From an uncultured Granulosicoccaceae bacterium (GTDB taxonomy: Bacteria > Pseudomonadota > Gammaproteobacteria > Granulosicoccales > Granulosicoccaceae): DNA of 38,509 nt. Below, piece after piece: positions 8,019 through 23,370 of the stretch. Each line of letters starts with the position of its first letter. Positions within the stretch are counted from its first letter, which is position 1. The stretch is from positions 1 to 38,509 of the forward strand of contig CALJNA010000149.1 in assembly GCA_937981955.1 (NCBI GenBank). Reading direction: 5' to 3'. The notes beneath the pieces were generated by a model. That model searched no databases and was not told the DNA's origin. It saw nothing but the letters and a program-made list of their open reading frames with translations. The position numbers and the translations under genes were made by a program.

Positions 8019-8094
8019 GTCCCCTTCGTCTAGTGGCCTAGGACACCGCCCTTTCACGGCGGTAACAGGGGTTCGAGTCCCCTAGGGGACGCCA
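8019..8094 (+). tRNA. tRNA-Glu (anticodon TTC)
   Basis: A 76-base cloverleaf: acceptor stem GTCCCCT/AGGGGAC, D-arm, anticodon stem CCGCC/GGCGG with loop CTTTCAC (anticodon TTC), T-arm with GTTCGAG, discriminator G and an encoded CCA. It reads glutamate codons GAA and GAG. Confidence 0.97.
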
Positions 8095-14231: not shown

Positions 14232-15458
14232 CTATTTATCCTCTTTTTGTCCGCGGCGTAAGAGTCGACCCAAAATAAAACTGGTTCTTGGAAGATAACG
14301 ATACGGACGACGGGTTTCGCTTTGTGGGCCTGCGGACATTCGGTAAAAGCCAAACACAACCAGAGCGGCGTGCGCGCAGGCGATCATAACGAACAGCATA
14401 GCCGGTCCTCCTGTTTGCATCAGGTAAGACGACAGCAACGGGCTTGCAATAGCTCCCACCCCGTATAAGAACAATAGCGATGCACTTAATTCAACAGCTT
14501 GCCCCGGTTCCGCAAAGTCATTGGCGTGGGCGGCAGACAGAGAGAAAACCGGAAACGTCACCAGTCCAAATATTAGCGCCGAAAAATAGACAATTGAACG
14601 CGAATCATTGTCGTTCAGGACGGTTGCTGCGCACACTACAATTGACAAAGCTGAAACGGCGATCAAGACCCACCGGCGATCGAAACGGTCGGCTAACCAC
14701 CCGATAGGGACTTGCGCAAGTGCACCGCCGAGAACGAAGGCGGCCAGAAAGTAGGCTATTTCGGTGGCAATCAAACCCACCTGTTGCCCGTACACCGGCC
14801 CGACCATACGAAACGATGCTGCGGTGACCCCCGCAACGATGGCGCCTGCTGCACCCAAGGGTGATACACGAAACGTTTTTAACGGGCTAAGGCTCGGCGC
14901 TTCGGAAATAGTGGGTGGTTGCACTCGGGTTACGACCAGCGGTAACAGTGATGCACAACAAAGTATGGTCAGCAGATTGTATGCAACGTAGTGAGCAGGC
15001 TCGAGTACGCTAAGCATCAACTGCGCTATCAACGACGCTCCCAAGTCAACCGAGCGGTAAACACCCAGTACTGTGCCACGATTGTTGTTCGTAACGCGTG
15101 CTTGCAGCCAGGCTTCCACAACCGTGTAGCAACCGGCCACACAGAATCCGGTCAACACTCTTAGTGCGGCCCAGATTACTGGGTCTATAAGAATAGGGTG
15201 GCCGGCCGCGCCAATGGCGCCACATGCTGCAAAGGCTGCAAACGTGCGTGAATGGCCGACAATGCCAACGAGCTTTGGAGCAAGCCAACAGCCAAGGAAA
15301 AAACCAAGAAAATGGCTGGACCCCAAAAGCCCGACTTCGGTTGTTGTAAAACCACTTTTCAGACCACCCAGCGCATCCAGTGGAGAAATGGCACCACTGC
15401 TCAGTTGCAGTAACGCTACAGATAAAAAGAGCGCGGCGAACGAGATCAGGGTGCGCAT
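14232..15458 (-). CDS. MFS transporter, YcaD-like
   Basis: A 408-residue inner-membrane protein with twelve predicted helices. The N-terminal half resembles Escherichia coli YcaD (TEVGLLGSSHFLGFFLG, then the WAALRVLTGFCVAGCYTVVE stretch), and the cytoplasmic loop motif appears as GWLADRFDRRWVL between helices 6/7-8. The substrate is unknown. It is alone: the peptidase upstream on the same strand ends 120 bases away. No clear Shine-Dalgarno sequence precedes ATG 15458. The C-terminus is basic (RRPYRYLPRT...RRGQKEDK), consistent with a cytoplasmic end. Confidence 0.85.
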   Translation of the reverse strand: MRTLISFAALFLSVALLQLSSGAISPLDALGGLKSGFTTTEVGLLGSSHFLGFFLGCWLAPKLVGIVGHSRTFAAFAACGAIGAAGHPILIDPVIWAALRVLTGFCVAGCYTVVEAWLQARVTNNNRGTVLGVYRSVDLGASLIAQLMLSVLEPAHYVAYNLLTILCCASLLPLVVTRVQPPTISEAPSLSPLKTFRVSPLGAAGAIVAGVTAASFRMVGPVYGQQVGLIATEIAYFLAAFVLGGALAQVPIGWLADRFDRRWVLIAVSALSIVVCAATVLNDNDSRSIVYFSALIFGLVTFPVFSLSAAHANDFAEPGQAVELSASLLFLYGVGAIASPLLSSYLMQTGGPAMLFVMIACAHAALVVFGFYRMSAGPQSETRRPYRYLPRTSFILGRLLRRGQKEDK

Positions 15459-15564
15459 AGTCGGTTTGGAAGGCTGCTGTTAGCGGTACGTTACACCTTT
15501 GCTAATGACATGGTGTGTTAAATATATAATTAAGTCTCGTGTGGATTATCTCACTCAGCAATTA

Positions 15565-15579
15565 AGCTTAGCCTAAGCT
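15565..15579 (-). terminator. Short dyad at the end of the glutamate mutase operon
   Basis: AGCTTAGCCTAAGCT is a 6-bp perfect palindromic stem with a three-base loop, overlapping the peptidase stop. No T-run follows on the minus strand, so a terminator role is weak. Confidence 0.25.
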
Positions 15580-16664
15580 CAGGCTTCGATTACTTTTAGA
15601 TCTCGAGGTAGCTCAGAGAAAATTTCTGCACCGTCTTTTCTAAGAATAACGATGTCTTCGAGTCTCAGGCCAAATTGTCCGGGTAAGTAGATGCCTGGTT
15701 CAATCGAGAACACCATACCTTCATCGAGCACGGTTTGTGACGACGAAGTGATATAAGGTGTTTCATGAATTTCCACCCCCAAGCCATGACCGGTGCGGTG
15801 CACGAAATAGTCGCCGTAACCTGCATTGCTTATGACCTGTCGTGCCGCATCATCAACCACGTGAGCTTTTACACCGGGCTTTGCCGCTTGCATAGCAGCC
15901 TGGACCGCCGCTTCCACAATGGCGTGTATTTCTGCATAGTTTTCTGGTGGCGCGCCCATGGCAGCCATACGGGTAATGTCGCTGGGGTAGCCATCGATAC
16001 AACCACCAATATCCATGACCACAACATCGCCTGACTGCAGTGTGGTTTTGCCGGTGTGATGGTGTGGGAAGGCACCATTGGCACCGGTACCCACAATGGT
16101 AAACAGCGGCTGCGCCTGCTGTTGTGCAAAGGCGTCTCTGACCACCTGAGCTACGTCCAGTTCACTCATGCCAACCTGCATGCTGGCCCAGGCGGTTTGC
16201 ATGGCTTTGTCAGCTGAAAGCGCATTACGTTTTAATATGCTGAACTCCGACTCGTCTTTGCGCATCCGTAAAGCGCCGATGGTGCTAGCGGTGAATTGTC
16301 TGTCAGAGGCAGGCAGGGCATCTTGAACGAGTGCTGCAAAGTCAGCTCGCATGGTTTCGTCAAGTACTATGCTCTTGGCCTGACTTGCACCCGCAGCTTT
16401 AAGGCAATCAGCAAAGGCGGCCTCTGGTCCTTCGTCATCTGCCCAGGTATGGAAAGGCAGATCTGTCTGTTGTTTGGCGCTTTGGGCTTCCAGCGCCGGC
16501 ATAAGAAAACCAGCGTAGGATTTGGTTATGCAAAACAGTAGTGGGCGTTCGTCGGCATGAGGTCGAACCCCGGTAAGCCAGGCGAGATGAGCGCCAGGTC
16601 CGAGTGCAACCAGATCGACACCTTCTTGTTGCATGGTGTTGCGCAATACGTCCAGTCGACTCAT
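15579..16664 (-). CDS. M24 metallopeptidase (Xaa-Pro aminopeptidase-like)
   Basis: A 361-residue cytoplasmic peptidase. An N-terminal creatinase-like domain (1-130) is followed by a pita-bread domain with all five dinuclear-metal ligands: Asp218 (VVMDIG), Asp229 (PSDITR), His293 (GHGLG), Glu322 (IEPGIY) and Glu336 (LEDIV). His201-203 and His289 resemble the proline-dipeptidase substrate site. It removes or cleaves Xaa-Pro bonds in family members, though some relatives act on creatine-like substrates. AGAGG eight bases before ATG 16664 supports the start. It is the last gene of the glutamate mutase operon, 28 bases after the ligase. Its presence there suggests that the product may be a peptide or amide, which is inference. 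Confidence 0.85.
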   Translation of the reverse strand: MSRLDVLRNTMQQEGVDLVALGPGAHLAWLTGVRPHADERPLLFCITKSYAGFLMPALEAQSAKQQTDLPFHTWADDEGPEAAFADCLKAAGASQAKSIVLDETMRADFAALVQDALPASDRQFTASTIGALRMRKDESEFSILKRNALSADKAMQTAWASMQVGMSELDVAQVVRDAFAQQQAQPLFTIVGTGANGAFPHHHTGKTTLQSGDVVVMDIGGCIDGYPSDITRMAAMGAPPENYAEIHAIVEAAVQAAMQAAKPGVKAHVVDDAARQVISNAGYGDYFVHRTGHGLGVEIHETPYITSSSQTVLDEGMVFSIEPGIYLPGQFGLRLEDIVILRKDGAEIFSELPRDLKVIEA

Positions 16665-16692
16665 GATATTTGCCTCTTGTGTATTAAGAGCG

Positions 16693-18264
16693 TTAAGCGC
16701 CGGACAACTCTTGCTTTAGTTCTTCTTTATTTATCTGATTACGGTCGCTTTGTACCAGTGGTAACGATTTTCGGTAAACAATGCGGCCTGGAATCATATA
16801 GGAGGCAAGGTGTTTTTTCAGTTCAAACGTTATTTCCTTTTCGGAAATTTCTCCTGCAGCTGAATACACCATGACTATTTCTTCCTCAATGAGTGGATTG
16901 TCCATACCAAACACGGCGCATTGCTGAATCTGTGGAAGATTCTTTTCCACGACCGACTCTATTTCAAACGGTGACACGCGAAATCCGCTGGTTTTAATCA
17001 TGTCGTCGCGTCGGTCGACAAAGTAGAAGTAGCCTTCTTCATCTTTATATACGTAGTCACCAGAGGCGACGACGATTTCATCAGCTAATTGTCCTTGTAA
17101 ATCGACCACGTTCTTTAAAATATCCACAGATTTGAAACGCTCTGCGGTGTCCTCTGGCGCATTCCAGAAGCCTCGGTAAATATAACTGCCTCGGTGTATA
17201 AGTTCACCAACCTCGCGCGGTGCGCAAGCCTGACCATCTTCGTTGATGACATAGAGCTCGACGTCGGGTATGGCCTTGCCAATGGAATCGGGGCGAATTT
17301 TGATTTGAGACGGATCCAGATAGGTAGAACGAAACGCTTCCGTCAGTCCATGCATGGAATAAAAGGACGCATTCCTGAATGTTTTCGCACAGTCATCGAT
17401 CATTCGCTCTGTTACGTTGCCGCCGGATGATGTGATGATTCGGACCTTGTCAAACAGTTCTGCGCCGGGTTGGGTGTACAGGTCTTCGTCGAACATTTGC
17501 GAAATATTCACCGGCATAAGTGGTAACACGGTGACTTGATCATTCACCAAGTGGTTGAAAAAATCTCCCGGTAAGATAAACCCATGCAGTGCCAGCGTTG
17601 CCTTGTTCAGCAGTGAACAGAAAATCTGATTCAAACCGTAGTCAAGGTTGAAGATAAGCAACCCGGATATTACATCTTGCTCGTTTAAATTCAGATATTG
17701 GGATACCACACGTGCAGAGTCGATCAGATTCCGATGCGAGATAACAATGCCCTTCGGTGTACCGGTAAGACCGAAGGAATAGGTGATAACGGCATTGTCG
17801 TGGCCGTTGATATCACATTGGTATGGCTTGTTGTAGTACTTGAATATTTCTTCGAAAGAGGGGATATCTTTCCCTACTGTTTCAATAGAAACTATGTGTC
17901 CGTCGAAGTTGACCTCTTCGATACTTTCAAGTTTAAGCTTGTCAGTAATAATACACTGGATTTCGCAATCACCAATGATGTACTGCACTTGTTCAGGCTT
18001 GAGCAAGCGAGTCAGCGGCACCAGTATGTAGTCGGTCGATAATATAGCCAGTATTGCAATGACCTGCGAGACATCCTTTTTTGCATACAGGCCAACCCGC
18101 GCACCTTTGGGTAAATCAAGTTCCTTTAAATACAGTGCAACTTGATTGACTCTATCGAGTAATTCGGCATAGTTAAGTTTTCGCGCGTCCTGGGTCAGCG
18201 CAATTTTATCGGGGTGAGACAGTGCTGCGCTTTCCAGCAGGGTGCGAATACAGTTTATTGACAT
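16693..18264 (-). CDS. AMP-forming ligase/adenylation enzyme with altered catalytic motif
   Basis: A 523-residue ANL-superfamily enzyme, which would activate a carboxylate with ATP. The motifs seen are the A3 phosphate loop as YSFGLTGTPKG (162-172; usually SGTTGxPKG), A5 GLTE, A7 SGDYVYKDEEGY and A8 DRRDDMIKTSGFRVSPFEIE. The A10 motif near 508-513 reads RNQINK, so the catalytic Lys (usually NGK) is Gln510. This could abolish or slow adenylation or mark specialised chemistry. AAGGAG nine bases before ATG 18264 supports the start, which overlaps glmL by 10 bases. A stand-alone ligase next to glutamate mutase recalls vicenistatin-type 3-methylaspartate activation, but no carrier protein is seen here. 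Confidence 0.82.
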   Translation of the reverse strand: MSINCIRTLLESAALSHPDKIALTQDARKLNYAELLDRVNQVALYLKELDLPKGARVGLYAKKDVSQVIAILAILSTDYILVPLTRLLKPEQVQYIIGDCEIQCIITDKLKLESIEEVNFDGHIVSIETVGKDIPSFEEIFKYYNKPYQCDINGHDNAVITYSFGLTGTPKGIVISHRNLIDSARVVSQYLNLNEQDVISGLLIFNLDYGLNQIFCSLLNKATLALHGFILPGDFFNHLVNDQVTVLPLMPVNISQMFDEDLYTQPGAELFDKVRIITSSGGNVTERMIDDCAKTFRNASFYSMHGLTEAFRSTYLDPSQIKIRPDSIGKAIPDVELYVINEDGQACAPREVGELIHRGSYIYRGFWNAPEDTAERFKSVDILKNVVDLQGQLADEIVVASGDYVYKDEEGYFYFVDRRDDMIKTSGFRVSPFEIESVVEKNLPQIQQCAVFGMDNPLIEEEIVMVYSAAGEISEKEITFELKKHLASYMIPGRIVYRKSLPLVQSDRNQINKEELKQELSGA

Positions 18265-19541
18265 GTTGCCTGCTCCTTCGCGCCAATGGTCCAGATATCG
18301 TACTGTGTATCCAGTACGGTCACAGGCTTATGATCCGAATTCATTATTTTTCGGTAAAAGAACGCCACAACATCTTCGATATCGGCGGTAGTGAGTACTT
18401 TCGTTATGCCACCGGTAAACACAATGGAATTCATCGACAGCAGTTTTAACGTGACATAAGCAGGTCGGTAGTGGGACATTTTGCACAGAACCAGAAAGAT
18501 GGCCAGTTGCATGAGTATCTTGGTTGCCTTTTCACTGTGCTCTTTGTAGATATTTTCTGTCACTTTCAGGTGCATGAGCAGCTCATAGGCATACTCGTTG
18601 TTCTCTGCTGTGAATATCAGCGATTGCCGTGATTTGAAAACACCGAGCTTTTTAAACACAATTCTGTCGTGTTCCTGTTCAGTCACAATATTATCGCTGA
18701 CCAGATCTTTGGAGTAATGTACATCGGTTGTGGCACCGCCAATGTCCAGCAGAATAAACGGGTCGGTAACTGAAAAAGACGCATGAATATGCGGAAGAGA
18801 TTTATTCACCACAAACGGAGTCGAGTAAATCTGATTGCCGGTAATTTCATACAGGTGTTTGATGTCTTCTTTACCTTCAATATCTTCCTGATACAAGTTG
18901 GTTAAATAATCCTTTAGATGCTTCTCAACGATGTGCAGCCGATCATCAATAATATTGGGTAGCACAACGAGCTGGTTAATTGATTTTGAAAGCGTGGCGG
19001 CATCCGGGGCGTTGCCAACATAAACCACATTTGAGTAATTCAGTTTTGAAAGGTATGCGTGCAGTCGGTCATCGAACATGCCCCCGTTGGAATCGATTCC
19101 ACCCACAATAATGACCACATCGATAAGATCGCTGGGAATGGAATATTCCTCAATATCCTGAAACAGTATTGAGTCGATAACATTGATGCCAGAGTTGTAG
19201 GCAATATTGGTGGCGTACTTTAAAGAGTAGGAGTGTGTAAGTCCGATAATCAGTGTGCTAAGCCCGCCGTTTGCGGAGGAGCAAATATGTATGTCCTGCG
19301 CATCGAAGCGTTGCACGGTATCACCGCACTTGTGCATCAAGTCATCGAGAATACGCTTGTTGAAATCGCGAAAATGTTGCTCGATGGAATGTGCGGTACT
19401 GACTTTGAAGTAGGTGCTGCCAATATCAACCAGCAGTTTGCTATTACTGCTTGACTGGTCGGTTGGCTTCTCGCTGGAATGGCCGTTTAACTGGCCAACT
19501 CCGTTCAGGACGGAGCCATCTGTTTCATTCTCTGTGCTCAC
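18255..19541 (-). CDS. glmL: Glutamate mutase reactivase GlmL (ASKHA ATPase)
   Basis: A 428-residue MutL/GlmL protein. In the methylaspartate system it is an ATPase chaperone linked to glutamate mutase. The actin-like phosphate-1 motif LLVDIGSTYFKVST (35-48) and the second motif ILLDIGGATTDVHYS (about 267) are clear, as is VVIIVGGIDSNGGMFDDRL between them. The N-terminal 30 residues are a Ser/Asn-rich extension. It overlaps glmE by four bases (ATGA), so the genes are translationally coupled, and it overlaps the ligase by ten. It is not DNA mismatch repair MutL. The role is inferred from the family and the neighbours. Confidence 0.88.
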   Translation of the reverse strand: MSTENETDGSVLNGVGQLNGHSSEKPTDQSSSNSKLLVDIGSTYFKVSTAHSIEQHFRDFNKRILDDLMHKCGDTVQRFDAQDIHICSSANGGLSTLIIGLTHSYSLKYATNIAYNSGINVIDSILFQDIEEYSIPSDLIDVVIIVGGIDSNGGMFDDRLHAYLSKLNYSNVVYVGNAPDAATLSKSINQLVVLPNIIDDRLHIVEKHLKDYLTNLYQEDIEGKEDIKHLYEITGNQIYSTPFVVNKSLPHIHASFSVTDPFILLDIGGATTDVHYSKDLVSDNIVTEQEHDRIVFKKLGVFKSRQSLIFTAENNEYAYELLMHLKVTENIYKEHSEKATKILMQLAIFLVLCKMSHYRPAYVTLKLLSMNSIVFTGGITKVLTTADIEDVVAFFYRKIMNSDHKPVTVLDTQYDIWTIGAKEQATCQ

Positions 19542-20902
19542 TGCATGATTCCGATGTCGTGAATGATGTCATTCACAATGCTGGTGGTGTCCTTGTTCAG
19601 GTCGCAACAGGATTTTTCGTATTCGAAACAACGATCGGGGATGGGAACGTTTCCACGATCGATAATGCGAATGTTCTTCTGCGCATCGCGGATGGTGATC
19701 ATTTTATTGTGGTTAATAATGTGCGGTGAAAATGGCACATCAATAACCCCGTTCTTGATTGAATTAAATACTTTACGCCACAAAGTGTCGGCCGGGTCGT
19801 TAAACACCGCCTCCATAATCGCCTTGACTTCCGCGGTCAGAATCTCCTCTTCCTGTTCATCGACAACGGCTGGCAGACCGCCCAGAATGTTAAGCGTGTA
19901 TTGTGTGTTGGCAACAGTTTGTGCGTTGGCTTCCTTGGTCGGTATACCGACAGCTTCCTCTCGCGTTTTAGTAATGATTTTGTCTGCACCAACCATGGAG
20001 GCAATAACGGTAGACATATTGATCAGCTGATCGGCTGAGTCTCTGTTGGTTGGAAACGCTCCCATCCATTGGTGATAGACAAGGTGGATACTTGCATCTT
20101 CACAATCAATTTGTTTTGCATAGTGATCGGCCAGTTTGCGTGTCACCGTGCCAGTAACTATGTCTTGTATCATCGAGCCTTGCTGAGCGAACGAGACCGA
20201 GAAAGACTTTACCCCTTCCTCGAGTGAGAGCAACATTTCAAGCAACTGAATAACAATCGTGATCGATGGTGGTACTAGAGTCGCAGTAAGTGGCCCAAAC
20301 GACTCCCGGTTGATTGGCTTGTTCAGCGTGGAATAGTCAGCACAGACACGTTCAACATATTTCCAGTACAAAAATGCCTTGTCTAGTGGGAAATTCTTTG
20401 AGTAGGGGAGCAGATAGGTTATCGGTCCACCCTCTATTTCAAAAATGCCAGAGGCAATGGCAATTTCAATTAATAACCTGGCATCCGGCGTACCGTGCCG
20501 AAGGCTTACAGGGTGATTGAAGTGAGTCATCATTTTCCGCGTGGTGCGATAACCATGATTAACCAGCGGGTAACCATTGAGCATATCAATCTCGTTTGCC
20601 TCGCTCAATCGCAGCATTTTCTTCGCGGTGGTGTAGTCATTGAGGCGCGTGTTGGAGTCGATGGTCAGTGGCAACACATCGACATTGGCGTCGACAAAAA
20701 ACTCATACAGCGCAAATTGCTTTTCGTATGTCGGGAAGCCGCCTCTGGGCTGAACCAGCATTTTCTCTGCAGTATCAAAGTGGTGCGAAATAAACAATTG
20801 CTCGTCAGCACCTCTGACGAATTCACGAACCTCATCGAAATCAAAGGCATCAACGTTTTCATTGCCCAGAATGATTTCACGTTCTTCTTGTAGCTGGCTC
20901 AT
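19538..20902 (-). CDS. glmE: Glutamate mutase epsilon subunit
   Basis: The catalytic subunit that, with GlmS and coenzyme B12, converts L-glutamate to L-threo-3-methylaspartate. Length is 454 (clostridial about 480). Mapped by eye to the Clostridium cochlearium enzyme, the arginine claw is kept (Arg53, 86 and 135 for 66, 100 and 149). Glu157 (171), Tyr163 (177), Tyr167 (181), Lys312 (326) and Glu316 (330) are also kept. Landmark stretches are TLVPPS and VYHQWMGAFP. All major substrate contacts are present, so it should be active on glutamate. It overlaps glmS by four bases and glmL by four bases. Confidence 0.92.
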   Translation of the reverse strand: MSQLQEEREIILGNENVDAFDFDEVREFVRGADEQLFISHHFDTAEKMLVQPRGGFPTYEKQFALYEFFVDANVDVLPLTIDSNTRLNDYTTAKKMLRLSEANEIDMLNGYPLVNHGYRTTRKMMTHFNHPVSLRHGTPDARLLIEIAIASGIFEIEGGPITYLLPYSKNFPLDKAFLYWKYVERVCADYSTLNKPINRESFGPLTATLVPPSITIVIQLLEMLLSLEEGVKSFSVSFAQQGSMIQDIVTGTVTRKLADHYAKQIDCEDASIHLVYHQWMGAFPTNRDSADQLINMSTVIASMVGADKIITKTREEAVGIPTKEANAQTVANTQYTLNILGGLPAVVDEQEEEILTAEVKAIMEAVFNDPADTLWRKVFNSIKNGVIDVPFSPHIINHNKMITIRDAQKNIRIIDRGNVPIPDRCFEYEKSCCDLNKDTTSIVNDIIHDIGIMQ

Positions 20903-21330
20903 GCGCCTGTGGTTTCCAATGCTGGCGAGCTTTGTCGCATATGGTCTTCAAGCATATCCAGACCTGTGTTCAGATCGATTTGATGGCAAACCAGATCGAA
21001 GCCGTATGATTTGAAACGCTGAACGATATCTTCAGCATTACCGCTACCCACGGTTAAGTTACCACCGATCATCATGACCAGATTATCGAGGTTTTTGTAT
21101 TTCGCTTTAAGCAACTTGACTTCACGGCCCCAGCCCTCGGCTTCACCATTCAGCGAGGAGATCAGCAGAATGTCGGCACCGGTTTCCACCGCCGCATCGA
21201 AGAATTCCTCAAGGTAGGTGTTAACGCCCAGATTAAATACTTCATAGCCTCTCGCATTGAGAGATAAATCCATTAGACGATTGGCAACCACGTGGATATC
21301 ATTGCCAATGACCCCTGTAACGACTTTCAT
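20899..21330 (-). CDS. glmS: Glutamate mutase sigma subunit, cobalamin-binding
   Basis: A 143-residue B12-binding subunit. The base-off cobalamin motif is DxH, with Asp11 and His13 (lower axial ligand), but the canonical DxHxxG Gly is Ala16 (NDIHVVANRL). SxL (Ser58-Ser59-Leu60) and GG (89-90) are normal. It is the first gene of the operon glmS-glmE-glmL-ligase-peptidase. GTGAG lies a few bases before ATG 21330. No B12 riboswitch is seen in the 126-base divergent region, and cobalamin synthesis or uptake is not encoded here. Confidence 0.9.
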   Translation of the reverse strand: MKVVTGVIGNDIHVVANRLMDLSLNARGYEVFNLGVNTYLEEFFDAAVETGADILLISSLNGEAEGWGREVKLLKAKYKNLDNLVMMIGGNLTVGSGNAEDIVQRFKSYGFDLVCHQIDLNTGLDMLEDHMRQSSPALETTGA

Positions 21331-21456
21331 TGCTCACTTGCTCTTTTTCTGCTGATTTCATTCTACCAAAAGCATCCAGCGCACAGACGCCGGGATGGTG
21401 GTATCTTTACGGCGAGGCTTGCGATTAGCAGGTAATACCCCAGCGGAGAAGACTAT

Positions 21457-21942
21457 ATGGGCGATTATACCGCCGATTTCTGTGACACCCATCCGGATAA
21501 AGTATCGGTCCTTGGACCAGGCTTTTCTAACTACGGTGGCGCCGGTATGTGTCAGGGAGAGATAAGCACTATCTGGCTTGACCAGAACAACAGCGACCTC
21601 ATCACACTATTACGGGATGAAAAAGGTGATGGCAAAGTCGTTGTGGTTGATGCCGATCAGGCCTATTACGCTATCGTTGGCGAGATGCTCATGAAGTATG
21701 CGCACGAAAACGGCTATGCAGGCATCATCGTCAACGGCTATATCAGAGACACTGAGCAGATCAAAGATATCCCTGTGGCCTTGTACGCTCTAGGGACTTG
21801 CTCTAGAAAATCCATTCCAGTCACCCAGGGTCGACGCAACATTTCGTTGTCGTTTGGCGGTGTGGAGTTCAAGCCAGGCAGCTATGTGTATGCAGATAAC
21901 GATGGCATAATTGTTACTGCCGAAAAGCTTCCTTCGGCTTAG
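21457..21942 (+). CDS. RraA-like aldolase/decarboxylase family protein
   Basis: A 161-residue protein of the RraA/HMG aldolase family. The core TADFCDTHPDKVSVLGPGF and GEMLMKYAHENGYAGIIVNGYIRDTEQI, with the Arg and Asp of the active site (YIRD), and the end GVEFKPGSYVYADNDGIIVT are typical. Relatives cleave 4-hydroxy-4-methyl-2-oxoglutarate or decarboxylate oxaloacetate; others (RraA of E. coli) bind RNase E. The GGSLR-type loop is replaced by DADQAYYA. GGAG eight bases before ATG 21457 supports the start. It diverges from glmS across 126 bases, so a link to methylaspartate or methyl-branched C5 acids is possible but unproven. It converges with the cytochrome gene. Confidence 0.82.
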   Translation: MGDYTADFCDTHPDKVSVLGPGFSNYGGAGMCQGEISTIWLDQNNSDLITLLRDEKGDGKVVVVDADQAYYAIVGEMLMKYAHENGYAGIIVNGYIRDTEQIKDIPVALYALGTCSRKSIPVTQGRRNISLSFGGVEFKPGSYVYADNDGIIVTAEKLPSA

Positions 21943-21975
21943 AAATAGCCGTCAGCATCGCGTTGAACCGTCGGT

Positions 21976-23370
21976 CTATTTATCGACGGGCAATCCGCTG
22001 GGTACCTGATCAGGAACGCCGAATGCCGTTTGCGTAACATCCGGGCTGCTAAGTGTTTTCAGGAACTCAACAATCGCTTGAACCTGGTCTTTGTCCAGCT
22101 CAACCGGTTGAATATCTTGCCTGGCCTGATAGCGCTGCATCTCGCGTTTATCTTGTTGAATCAAAAAGTCTGCTTCGTTAAGCCAAGCAATATCGGGTAT
22201 AGCGGCGTCGTTGGGTTTCCAGCTATTGCGTGAAGCGGCAGGATTCAAGTGATGTTCCACCATGGCTTTCAGCGAGCGGTAAGCACCGTTATGTCCGTAT
22301 GGCGCTGTGAACTCCACGTTACGAAGCGAAGGTGTGCGGAAGCGATAAGCGTCTTCTCGTCGGTCACTTTCACCTAAGCGGCCAACATCTCGTGGCATTG
22401 GATCATGGCGTCGTGTCCGGCCCGGTCCGAAGGGCGGTAGTCCAAGTGCATAAAATTTCTGATCAGTAAATAATTTGCCTGAATGGCATTCACTGCAATT
22501 TGCCTGGCCGTAGAACAAATTCATACCGGTTTTCTCTGACTCAGACAGGGCATCATTTCGGCCGGAAACAAATTGATCAAAGCGTGAGTTGGTCGATTGC
22601 CACTCAAGTGTTTCAAACGCTGCAATTGCATTCGCAATATCAACAATGCGAATATCACGTTCTGATTCTATGTGGTCGAATGCGTCGACGAACAAGGCAA
22701 CATAGTCTGGTATGCCCTTAATGCGCTTAGTGATTATTGGCCATACGTGATCTATACGGTCAAAGGCCGCCCGCGCAACTGAATTCTCTTCCGGGTCACC
22801 TGCCATCTCGAATCGCGCTGCCATTGGAAACAAGGCTTGTGCTGCCAGCAGGCCTGATAAGCCTTCTGGCAATCGTTCTTCTGCAGGTGAATTAAACCCG
22901 TTGCCGTAGTCATCTGATAATGACAGCCTGCCATCATGAAAAAGTATTTCGATGTCGTTCGCACCAAGGTTCCACAAAGCGGGTGCGTTTCTTGGGATAC
23001 GTCGTTTTATTCGAGATTCACTGGTACCGGGTAATCTGTCAGGGCCGAGCCCTGAACCGCCCTCACCAATACCAAGCGAAAGCCCGTCAGCGCCACCATG
23101 CTTAAGATGGTGACAGGTGCCGCAGGAAATATTTTTGTTTCCAGATAAAATTTTATCGTAGAAAAGTAACTGGCCAAGCTTTGCCTGCTTTTCGTTTTGT
23201 ACCGGAAAGTCTTCAGCCGTTAATGGCTCTGGTAGACTGCTTGCGTTTGCAGCACCCATTTCAAGAACCAGCAGGGTGGTTACCAATGCAATTTTGTATG
23301 TACAGTTTACAAACTTAAGTTTCAGGCATCGAGAAAGGCAATGAGCGTAACTCGCAAATATAGTCTGCAC
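21976..23370 (-). CDS. Diheme cytochrome c peroxidase/MauG-type protein
   Basis: Two heme-c motifs are present: CGTCH (first) and CSECH (second), each in the usual CcpA/MauG context (LGQLLFYDKILSGNKNISC... and MNLFYGQANC...). The TAPYGHNGAYRSLKAMVEHHLNP stretch is typical of the family's second domain. A signal peptide (KIALVTTLLVLEMGAANA) puts it in the periplasm, where it would reduce peroxide or oxidise a partner. The 5' end is uncertain: no ATG fits. I choose GTG 23370, with GGTGA eight bases upstream; CTG 23325 directly before the signal peptide is an alternative. The chosen start overlaps the Sel1 gene by 30 bases head to head. Confidence 0.8.
   Translation of the reverse strand: MQTIFASYAHCLSRCLKLKFVNCTYKIALVTTLLVLEMGAANASSLPEPLTAEDFPVQNEKQAKLGQLLFYDKILSGNKNISCGTCHHLKHGGADGLSLGIGEGGSGLGPDRLPGTSESRIKRRIPRNAPALWNLGANDIEILFHDGRLSLSDDYGNGFNSPAEERLPEGLSGLLAAQALFPMAARFEMAGDPEENSVARAAFDRIDHVWPIITKRIKGIPDYVALFVDAFDHIESERDIRIVDIANAIAAFETLEWQSTNSRFDQFVSGRNDALSESEKTGMNLFYGQANCSECHSGKLFTDQKFYALGLPPFGPGRTRRHDPMPRDVGRLGESDRREDAYRFRTPSLRNVEFTAPYGHNGAYRSLKAMVEHHLNPAASRNSWKPNDAAIPDIAWLNEADFLIQQDKREMQRYQARQDIQPVELDKDQVQAIVEFLKTLSSPDVTQTAFGVPDQVPSGLPVDK

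What the first reader, a model, noticed from the sequence alone, without database searches (positions are those of the whole stretch)
15579..21330. Coupled glutamate mutase/ligase/Xaa-Pro peptidase operon of unknown product
glmS, glmE and glmL overlap by four bases each, the ligase overlaps glmL by ten, and the peptidase follows by 28. The arrangement couples coenzyme B12-dependent formation of 3-methylaspartate to carboxylate activation and to a Pro-specific peptidase. All eight substrate-contacting residues I could map in GlmE are kept. The usual fermentation partner methylaspartase is absent, so the product may be incorporated or activated rather than degraded. In vicenistatin-type pathways a stand-alone ligase activates 3-methylaspartate, but no carrier protein or PKS/NRPS gene is present here. 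I infer an undescribed methylaspartate-derived metabolite or amide pathway.
Basis: partly seen in the sequence, partly recalled or inferred. Interest (0 to 1): 0.82.

Follow-up and report, generated by a model that had tools for sequence, protein, structure and literature searches.

The report
Conserved five-gene methylaspartate cassette
Five neighbouring genes that stay together in many Proteobacteria and Campylobacterota are predicted to rearrange the common amino acid glutamate into 3-methylaspartate with vitamin B12, and one of them likely activates that product for attachment to a partner that is still unknown.

Summary
The gene layout is exactly as reported, but the unit is drawn wrongly. 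Among 80 related loci (the best of 215), glmS, glmE and glmL are present in 80 and the ligase in 75; the five without it end just after glmE. The M24 peptidase is in one, so it is a chance neighbour. The missed fifth gene is a divergent rraA-like gene (21457-21942), in 71 of 80; in the genus it occurs in 15 of 16 GlmE-positive and 0 of 11 GlmE-negative genomes. GlmE keeps all nine active-site residues checked in 81 of 81. Only weak, partial methylaspartase-family matches occur in 27 genus and 15 other cassette genomes. The ligase pocket resembles VinN, the 3-methylaspartate activator, but unlike its exosortase-associated sisters the ligase has a changed P-loop and no conserved A10 lysine. No linked carrier protein was seen, and the partner decarboxylase is above cut-off in 1 of 27 and 1 of 15 genomes. 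I commit to: glutamate to 3-methylaspartate, activated at C4 and passed carrier-free to an unlinked acceptor. Every reaction is untested. It is a new variant of a known kind.

The parts
20899..21330 (-). glmS: B12-binding sigma subunit of glutamate mutase (143 aa), motif DxHxxA
   Evidence: PRK02261 147.9 bits, above cut-off 110; TIGR01501 94.5, under 135.8; A16 in 72 of 72 aligned; found in 80 of 80 loci
19538..20902 (-). glmE: catalytic epsilon subunit of glutamate mutase (454 aa)
   Evidence: PF06368 394.7 bits; TIGR01503 376.7 bits, just under cut-off 390.1; nine active-site residues 81 of 81
18255..19541 (-). glmL: divergent mutase reactivase of the MutL family (428 aa)
   Evidence: PF13941 88.6 bits; NF040745 71.7 bits against cut-off 475; found in 80 of 80 loci
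16693..18264 (-). VinN/TIGR03098-like adenylate-forming ligase (523 aa), predicted to bind 3-methylaspartate; altered A3 and A10 motifs
   Evidence: found in 75 of 80 loci, the other 5 cut by contig ends
21457..21942 (+). divergent rraA-like gene (161 aa) with class II aldolase / keto-acid decarboxylase type residues
   Evidence: PF03737 115.2 bits; E76-X20-R97-D98 in 64 of 64 aligned; 15 of 16 GlmE+ and 0 of 11 GlmE- genus genomes
21331..21456 (.). 126-base divergent intergenic region between rraA-like and glmS; presumed promoters of both (inferred)
   Evidence: no Rfam family there at gathering score
15579..16664 (-). M24 metallopeptidase (361 aa): neighbour, judged NOT part of the cassette
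   Evidence: relative in the fetched stretch of 1 of 80 loci, L026

Best explanation
A five-gene cassette (glmS-glmE-glmL-ligase with a divergent rraA-like gene) is predicted to turn L-glutamate into (2S,3S)-3-methylaspartate with a coenzyme-B12 mutase, and its VinN-like ligase likely activates that product at the C4 carboxylate for transfer, probably as an amide, to an acceptor not encoded nearby. GlmL is expected to reactivate the mutase. The rraA-like protein probably acts on a related keto acid, for example by decarboxylating 3-methyloxaloacetate that escapes by transamination. Shown here: the cassette, its conservation, the kept mutase active site, the VinN-like pocket, the changed ligase motifs, the lack of a convincing methylaspartase, and the lack of an above-cut-off partner decarboxylase in nearly all genomes tested. 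Inferred: every reaction, the C4 site, the amide, and the role of the rraA-like gene.
Against: VinN's K330 is F311; L141's ligase has A where the cassette has S280. Over the full length VinN is not the best PDB sequence match: LgrA leads and VinN is 7th or 18th, and VinN is not in Foldseek's first 50 rows. The ATP-site motifs depart from the superfamily (F164; position 166; A10 position 510 is K in 36 of 194 rows, and 119 of 194 have no K at 508 or 510), so adenylation may be slow or lost. No acceptor was identified, and carriers elsewhere in the genome were not searched. The same pocket occurs in exosortase-associated ligases whose substrate is unproven. The rraA-like protein scores above the cut-off of the RNase E regulator model (149.2 against 136), so a regulatory role is not excluded. 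GlmS has DxHxxA where DxHxxG is usual (recalled). Seven Aliarcobacter-type loci lack a linked rraA. The window genome is 77% complete.
Confidence: 0.4

Rival explanations
1. The ligase no longer adenylates: it binds 3-methylaspartate in the kept pocket but serves as a sensor, a carrier-like holder or a transferase that uses another activated donor.
For: A10 lysine lost in most cassette rows and P-loop changed (F164 194/194; 166 hydrophobic in 189 of 194) while pocket, A7 and A8 residues stay fixed; 117 of 117 sister ligases keep S164, S166, Y305 and K510. Passages say the A10 lysine contacts the alpha-phosphate and that its acetylation blocks adenylylation.
Against: P-loop positions listed as sensitive to mutation (my mapping: S163, G165, G168, P170, K171) are mostly kept, S163 replacing T; 52 of 74 locus rows still have K at 508, the place expected from Px4GK spacing; K513 is near and kept in 69 of 74.
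Confidence: 0.2
2. Alternative 2-oxobutyrate/isoleucine route: GlmES makes 3-methylaspartate, an aminotransferase makes 3-methyloxaloacetate, and the rraA-like enzyme decarboxylates it to 2-oxobutyrate; the ligase is accessory.
For: rraA-like residues of the class II aldolase type 64 of 64; an aromatic-amino-acid-transaminase-type gene lies within the fetched stretch of 34 of 80 loci; a glutamate mutase route to 2-ketobutyrate is on record (PMC7476758, one passage).
Against: Threonine deaminase IlvA is above cut-off in 24 of 27 genus genomes with or without the cassette (the window's own draft genome is one of the three without); the aminotransferase type is not cassette-specific in the genus (best matches 41-45% identity in 24 of 27 genomes); the fixed ligase has no role.
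Confidence: 0.13
3. Vicenistatin/exosortase-type pathway: 3-methylaspartate is loaded on a carrier protein encoded elsewhere, decarboxylated to a 3-aminoisobutyryl unit and attached to a larger product.
For: Pocket close to VinN and shared with TIGR03098 ligases; ligase, decarboxylase and carrier-like protein occur together in L137, and mutase, ligase and decarboxylase in L141.
Against: TIGR03099 above cut-off in 1 of 27 genus genomes (at the separate exosortase locus) and 1 of 15 cassette genomes; the best match elsewhere scores about 190-234 bits, as expected of LysA (inferred). Unlinked carriers were not searched.
Confidence: 0.12
4. CoA-ligase variant of the methylaspartate route: 3-methylaspartyl-CoA is made and then deaminated to mesaconyl-CoA for central metabolism.
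For: Ligase family includes CoA ligases; A8 lysine is kept.
Against: Best-scoring solved relatives are amino acid adenylation enzymes; no other conserved neighbour family among the loci that could be a hydratase or lyase was seen (most families not annotated).
Confidence: 0.07
5. Glutamate fermentation via methylaspartase.
For: Same mutase type as fermenters. Two of 27 genus genomes and two of 15 cassette genomes have a PF07476 match just over the cut-off of 27 bits (27.5, 27.6; 27.9, 29.4).
Against: All those matches cover only 79-129 of 249 positions, and the same search rings in 11 of 14 control genomes (over the cut-off in 2), as enolase-superfamily relatives would (that reading is inferred).
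Confidence: 0.03

Closest known systems
Vicenistatin starter-unit enzymes VinH/VinI (glutamate mutase) and VinN (3-methylaspartate ligase), Streptomyces
   Same: Mutase plus a stand-alone ligase; D/aromatic/S/R pocket with the same loop length
   Different: No linked carrier VinL, decarboxylase VinO, VinM, VinK or PKS here; K330 is F; altered A3/A10; linked rraA-like gene
Exosortase A-associated ligase TIGR03098 with decarboxylase TIGR03099
   Same: Closest NCBIfam model (443 bits); same pocket residues in most of 117 sisters (Y209 in 111, S280 in 92 else T, N212 in 34 else S)
   Different: Below the 592-bit cut-off; no exosortase locus, carrier or decarboxylase linked; 27-38% identity to the sisters aligned; A3, A5, A10 differ
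L141 cluster (GlmS-GlmE fusion + TIGR03098-like ligase + TIGR03099-like decarboxylase)
   Same: Mutase genetically tied to a ligase with D, Y, F, R of the pocket
   Different: A at the S280 place, fused mutase, decarboxylase present, canonical ligase motifs, no glmL or rraA-like gene noticed next door
Clostridial/enteric glutamate-fermentation glm operon
   Same: glmS, glmE and glmL with the same active site
   Different: No methylaspartase gene here; GlmE only 36-40% identical in the ten plasmid rows listed of 30
ANL amide bond synthetases such as McbA
   Same: Fold; adenylation and amidation in one active site
   Different: 17-18% identity; acts on aryl acids; offered as analogy, not membership
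RraA / HMG-CHA aldolase family
   Same: PF03737; R-D pair plus an acid 21 residues before the R; above the PRK09372 cut-off
   Different: E instead of D at that place (recalled motif), Q101; a second short RraA at 30-42% identity coexists in 13 of 15 cassette genomes

Membership tests
Glutamate (methylaspartate) mutase | Arginine claw R66/R100/R149 with E171 and Y177 | tested here: met
   R53, R86, R135, E157, Y163 in 81 of 81; residue roles from PMC10947579 passages
Glutamate (methylaspartate) mutase | Curated model score of GlmE | tested here: inconclusive
   PF06368 394.7 against cut-off 26.6, but TIGR01503 376.7 under 390.1
Glutamate (methylaspartate) mutase | DxHxxG...SxL...GG B12 motif in GlmS (recalled) | tested here: inconclusive
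   D11, H13, S58, L60, G89, G90 kept; G is A16 in 72 of 72
Glutamate (methylaspartate) mutase | Interconverts glutamate and 3-methylaspartate | not testable with these tools
   Needs enzyme assay
Glutamate fermentation (methylaspartase) pathway | Full-length methylaspartate ammonia-lyase in the genome | tested here: not met
   PF07476: window genome 23.9 bits (cut-off 27); 2 of 27 genus genomes (27.5, 27.6) and 2 of 15 cassette genomes (27.9, 29.4) just over it, all partial; controls ring in 11 of 14
VinN-type 3-methylaspartate ligase | Pocket D230, aromatic 231, S299, R331 and short loop | tested here: met
   D208, Y209, S280, R312, gapless; 194 of 194 rows
VinN-type 3-methylaspartate ligase | K330 | tested here: not met
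   F311 in 194 of 194 rows
VinN-type 3-methylaspartate ligase | Linked carrier protein and decarboxylase | tested here: not met
   No carrier-like sense ORF in the window; no such conserved neighbour family seen; decarboxylase. Unlinked carriers not tested
TIGR03098 exosortase A ligase | Score above curated cut-off | tested here: not met
   443.1 against 592.35; but L137, a ligase beside an above-cut-off TIGR03099 gene, also falls short at 520.8
ANL adenylate-forming enzymes | A7 Asp, A8 Arg and A8 Lys | tested here: met
   D403 and R418 in 194 of 194, K424 in 193 of 194 with one X
ANL adenylate-forming enzymes | A3 P-loop (S/T)(S/T/G)G(S/T)TGxPK | tested here: not met
   F164 in 194 of 194; position 166 S in 5 only
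ANL adenylate-forming enzymes | A10 catalytic Lys | tested here: not met
   Window has R508 and Q510; no K at either in 119 of 194 rows, 17 of 74 among locus rows
RraA-like class II aldolase | Acid-X20-R-D metal/catalytic residues | tested here: met
   E76, R97, D98 in 64 of 64; published motif recalled; PMC5065237 passage says most homologs with such motifs likely act as aldolases
RraA regulator of RNase E | Score above curated model cut-off | tested here: inconclusive
   PRK09372 149.2 over 136, but the enterobacterial model TIGR02998 100.3 under 241.25; RNase E binding not testable

The most novel reading that the evidence does not exclude
A widespread, undescribed carrier-free methylaspartate pathway: a B12 mutase and a VinN-like ligase with a rebuilt ATP site attach 3-methylaspartate through C4 to a common cell metabolite or macromolecule, so that Proteobacteria and Campylobacterota share an unknown 3-methylaspartyl compound, with an rraA-like enzyme as its dedicated partner.
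Probability: 0.33. Interest if true: 0.82.

Novelty: new variant of a known kind. Interest (0 to 1): 0.62.

Why it matters
It would give glutamate mutase a further role besides fermentation and antibiotic starter supply, here with no PKS or NRPS gene seen beside it, and would point to an unknown 3-methylaspartyl compound made by many bacteria. The conserved cassette gives a compact target: five genes, a likely substrate, and cultured carriers (Granulosicoccus antarcticus by a source name; Neptuniibacter caesariensis and Colwellia echini by record title). The ligase is also a natural case for asking what adenylation needs when the A10 lysine and P-loop are changed.

Tried and rejected
Peptidase as pathway member: rejected (1 of 80 loci). 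Aminotransferase as sixth member: it lies within 34 of 80 fetched loci but is not cassette-specific in the genus, so left out. Isoleucine supply: weakened by IlvA in 24 of 27. Plasmid carriage: GlmE matches in 30 plasmid records, all under 60% identity; the ten listed reach 40% at most. Riboswitch: only a tRNA at 8019-8091 in Rfam at gathering score. Promoter and terminator scans of 15400-22100: 11 promoter-like sites against 10.3 expected, 10 terminator-like against 6.3. A conserved operator upstream of glmS: no 8-mer was shared by more than 19 of 77 upstream stretches. First structure model with 13 close sequences was poor (pLDDT 43.9); repeated with 76 more varied sequences. Phylum search: 1 of 396 other genomes sampled has the close GlmE type (86%), four more have 33-39% relatives, so the type is patchy. 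Papers: no hit joins glutamate mutase with RraA; methylaspartate with exosortase gives one haloarchaeal genome paper (listing only); 'methylaspartate mutase' with Gammaproteobacteria and operon gives none. I found no description within that library by those searches; nothing more is claimed. Of every cited paper I saw passages only, apart from one whole section of PMC11284099.

Limits: only the best 80 of 215 loci were examined, with flanks of uneven length. The 194 cassette rows are 74 locus rows plus 120 database rows and overlap (the window is in both). Rows dropped by length: 3 of 120 sisters under 480 aa; alignments used 72 of 73 GlmS, 76 of 80 GlmL and 64 of 70 rraA-like rows. L042's genome was not held. 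ORF-based counts missed some genes, so tblastn counts replace them; spacings use longest-ORF starts. Some records look misassigned (L027, L094, L045), so phylum spread rests on the clades with several genomes.
Full report
What is there. The window is one contig (C149, 38,509 bases) of a 4.34-Mb draft genome, 77% complete; its nearest named relatives are Granulosicoccaceae. Searches confirm the reported genes and spacing: glmS, glmE and glmL overlap by 4 bases each, the ligase overlaps glmL by 10, and an M24 peptidase follows after 28. On the other strand, 126 bases from glmS, lies an rraA-like gene (21457-21942).

Which genes belong together. One search found 215 contigs encoding close GlmE relatives and kept the best 80 (78-96% identity): Gammaproteobacteria of many families, three betaproteobacterial records, and Campylobacterota (Sulfurimonas, Arcobacter, Aliarcobacter), all by record title. 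By tblastn glmS, glmE and glmL are in 80 of 80, the ligase in 75 of 80 and the rraA-like gene in 71 of 80 (in a few of these several kb away). The five without ligase end 108-770 bases after glmE. Of the nine without rraA, two start within 1.4 kb of glmE; the other seven are Arcobacter caeni, Aliarcobacter bins and one like them, and A. caeni has two rraA-like genes at 47-50% elsewhere in its genome. A relative of the peptidase is in 1 of 80 (L026). The flanks otherwise vary from locus to locus, even within Granulosicoccaceae. Strand and overlap are uniform: glmS-glmE (73 loci) and glmE-glmL (80) have a median overlap of 4 bases, glmL-ligase (74) of 10, and rraA is opposite in 70 of 70 (longest-ORF starts).

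Co-occurrence across genomes. In the 27 genus genomes, GlmE is in 16. The ligase at 429-452 bits is in 16: 15 are shared. G001, with GlmE, also carries a ligase, broken by a frame change, next to glmL on another contig. G011 (63% complete) has the ligase but no GlmE hit, so it probably also bears the cassette. The close rraA-like gene (72-81% identity, besides the window itself) is in 15 genomes, all GlmE-positive; the GlmE-positive genome without it (G022) has GlmE incomplete (residues 88-454). It is in 0 of the 11 GlmE-negative genomes, G011 included; counted against the 17 probable cassette bearers it is in 15. The other rraA-family hits in the genus are at most 33% identical. In 15 cassette genomes reached through other loci, 13 have a second short RraA at 30-42%, so there the cassette copy is not the only, presumably housekeeping, one. 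In a phylum-wide sample 1 of 396 other genomes has a GlmE of this type (86%); the next best is 39%.

History. A tree of GlmE+GlmL+ligase (74 rows, SH-aLRT support only) puts the 19 Campylobacterota rows on one side of a fully supported branch among gammaproteobacterial families. Pairwise distances of the five cassette genes correlate (r 0.52-0.83, 0 of 999 permutations as high), but so do those of the neighbouring aminotransferase (r 0.52-0.72), so this does not by itself show co-transfer.

The mutase. The only solved relatives at E<=0.001 are glutamate mutase epsilon chains (the organism, Clostridium cochlearium, is recalled). R66, R100, R149, E171 and Y177 (roles from passages of PMC10947579), and Y181, H291, K326 and E330 (recalled), are all kept in 81 of 81 sequences. 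GlmS keeps D11, H13, the SxL and the GG, but has A for G in DxHxxG in 72 of 72. GlmL is divergent (71.7 bits against a cut-off of 475).

Changed ATP site. Against 117 sister TIGR03098-type ligases (of 120 returned), 194 cassette rows have F164 for S and mostly L166 for S in the P-loop, H305 for Y in A5 (an aromatic, so allowed by the consensus in PMC8388817, passages), and a two-residue longer A10 loop in which the canonical lysine (117 of 117 in sisters) is K in only 36 of 194; 119 of 194 have K at neither 508 nor 510. A7 D403, A8 R418 and A8 K424 are kept. The A10 lysine contacts the alpha-phosphate, and its acetylation prevents adenylylation (PMC4053389 passages). Position 508 is K in 52 of 74 locus rows, so some members may still use a lysine there; whether adenylation works is open.

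Independent pairing. In another genome of the phylum (L141, from G069) a GlmS-GlmE fusion lies next to a TIGR03098-like ligase (505 bits) and a TIGR03099-like decarboxylase (443 bits, cut-off 478). That ligase shares D, Y, F and R of the pocket but has A at the S280 place. In L137 a TIGR03098-type ligase lies with a TIGR03099 decarboxylase (514 bits) and a carrier-like protein (PF00550, 21.8 bits, cut-off 20.8). So most of the pocket recurs with a glutamate mutase in a separate setting, which supports 3-methylaspartate as ligand, while the cassette has no linked carrier or decarboxylase: TIGR03099 is above cut-off in 1 of 27 genus genomes and 1 of 15 cassette genomes, and no carrier-like sense ORF is in the window. 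Carriers elsewhere were not searched.

Fate of 3-methylaspartate. A full-length methylaspartase was not found: the window genome has one PF07476 match at 23.9 bits, under the cut-off of 27. Two of 27 genus genomes (27.5 and 27.6 bits) and two of 15 cassette genomes (27.9 and 29.4) are just over it, but those cover 79-129 of 249 positions, and 11 of 14 control genomes ring too, as expected of enolase-superfamily relatives (inferred). IlvA is above cut-off in 24 of 27 genomes regardless of the cassette, so isoleucine supply is an unlikely main purpose. The rraA-like protein keeps E76-X20-R97-D98 in 64 of 64, which fits a metal-dependent aldolase or decarboxylase (passage of PMC5065237); against that, it scores above the RNase E regulator cut-off (149.2 against 136).

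Verdict. The finding is real and more general than reported: a conserved five-gene cassette, with the peptidase replaced by an rraA-like partner. I rate as likely that it makes 3-methylaspartate and presents it to the ligase; carrier-free amide transfer is the best single guess for the last step and is untested. It is a new variant of the mutase-plus-VinN-type-ligase kind.

Noticed in passing
L141:6113-10959: GlmS-GlmE fusion protein next to a TIGR03099-like decarboxylase and a TIGR03098-like ligase: a compact vicenistatin-like starter module in a proteobacterial genome, near a glycosyltransferase-like gene (the last by eye only).
   Followed up: partly
L137:7690-12609: Exosortase-A-type locus with ligase, decarboxylase and a carrier-like protein; its ligase pocket (D, Y, T, F, R) resembles VinN's, suggesting that exosortase A systems handle a (methyl)aspartate-derived beta-amino acid.
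   Followed up: partly
window:20899-21330: GlmS has DxHxxA instead of the usual DxHxxG (consensus recalled), invariant in 72 of 72 cassette sequences.
   Followed up: partly
window:24004-29687: TRAP-type transporter genes, flavin reductase, aldo/keto reductase and a luciferase-family protein closest to alkanesulfonate monooxygenase (below cut-off) on one strand, with a GntR-like gene (by eye) divergent: looks like a separate uptake and oxidation cluster.
   Followed up: no
L087, L090: Two different contigs of one Aliarcobacter bin (STC_124) carry identical GlmE-GlmL-ligase rows in the tree: duplication or assembly artefact.
   Followed up: no
L027, L094, L045: A 'Rhodothermales' record nested in Granulosicoccaceae, an unclassified record 98% identical to Aliarcobacter, and a 'Colwellia' record 95% identical to Sulfurimonas in GlmE: probable misbinned contigs or recent transfer.
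   Followed up: partly
L135:7157-13148: In G023 a second, distant ligase lies with an asparagine-synthase-like gene, a small protein read by eye as carrier-like (no Pfam match) and further small-molecule genes (by eye).
   Followed up: no
window:2877-6391: FleQ-domain regulator, a MinD/ParA-type ATPase and a flagellar-type sigma factor (the last by eye) in a row: ordinary flagellar regulation genes.
   Followed up: no
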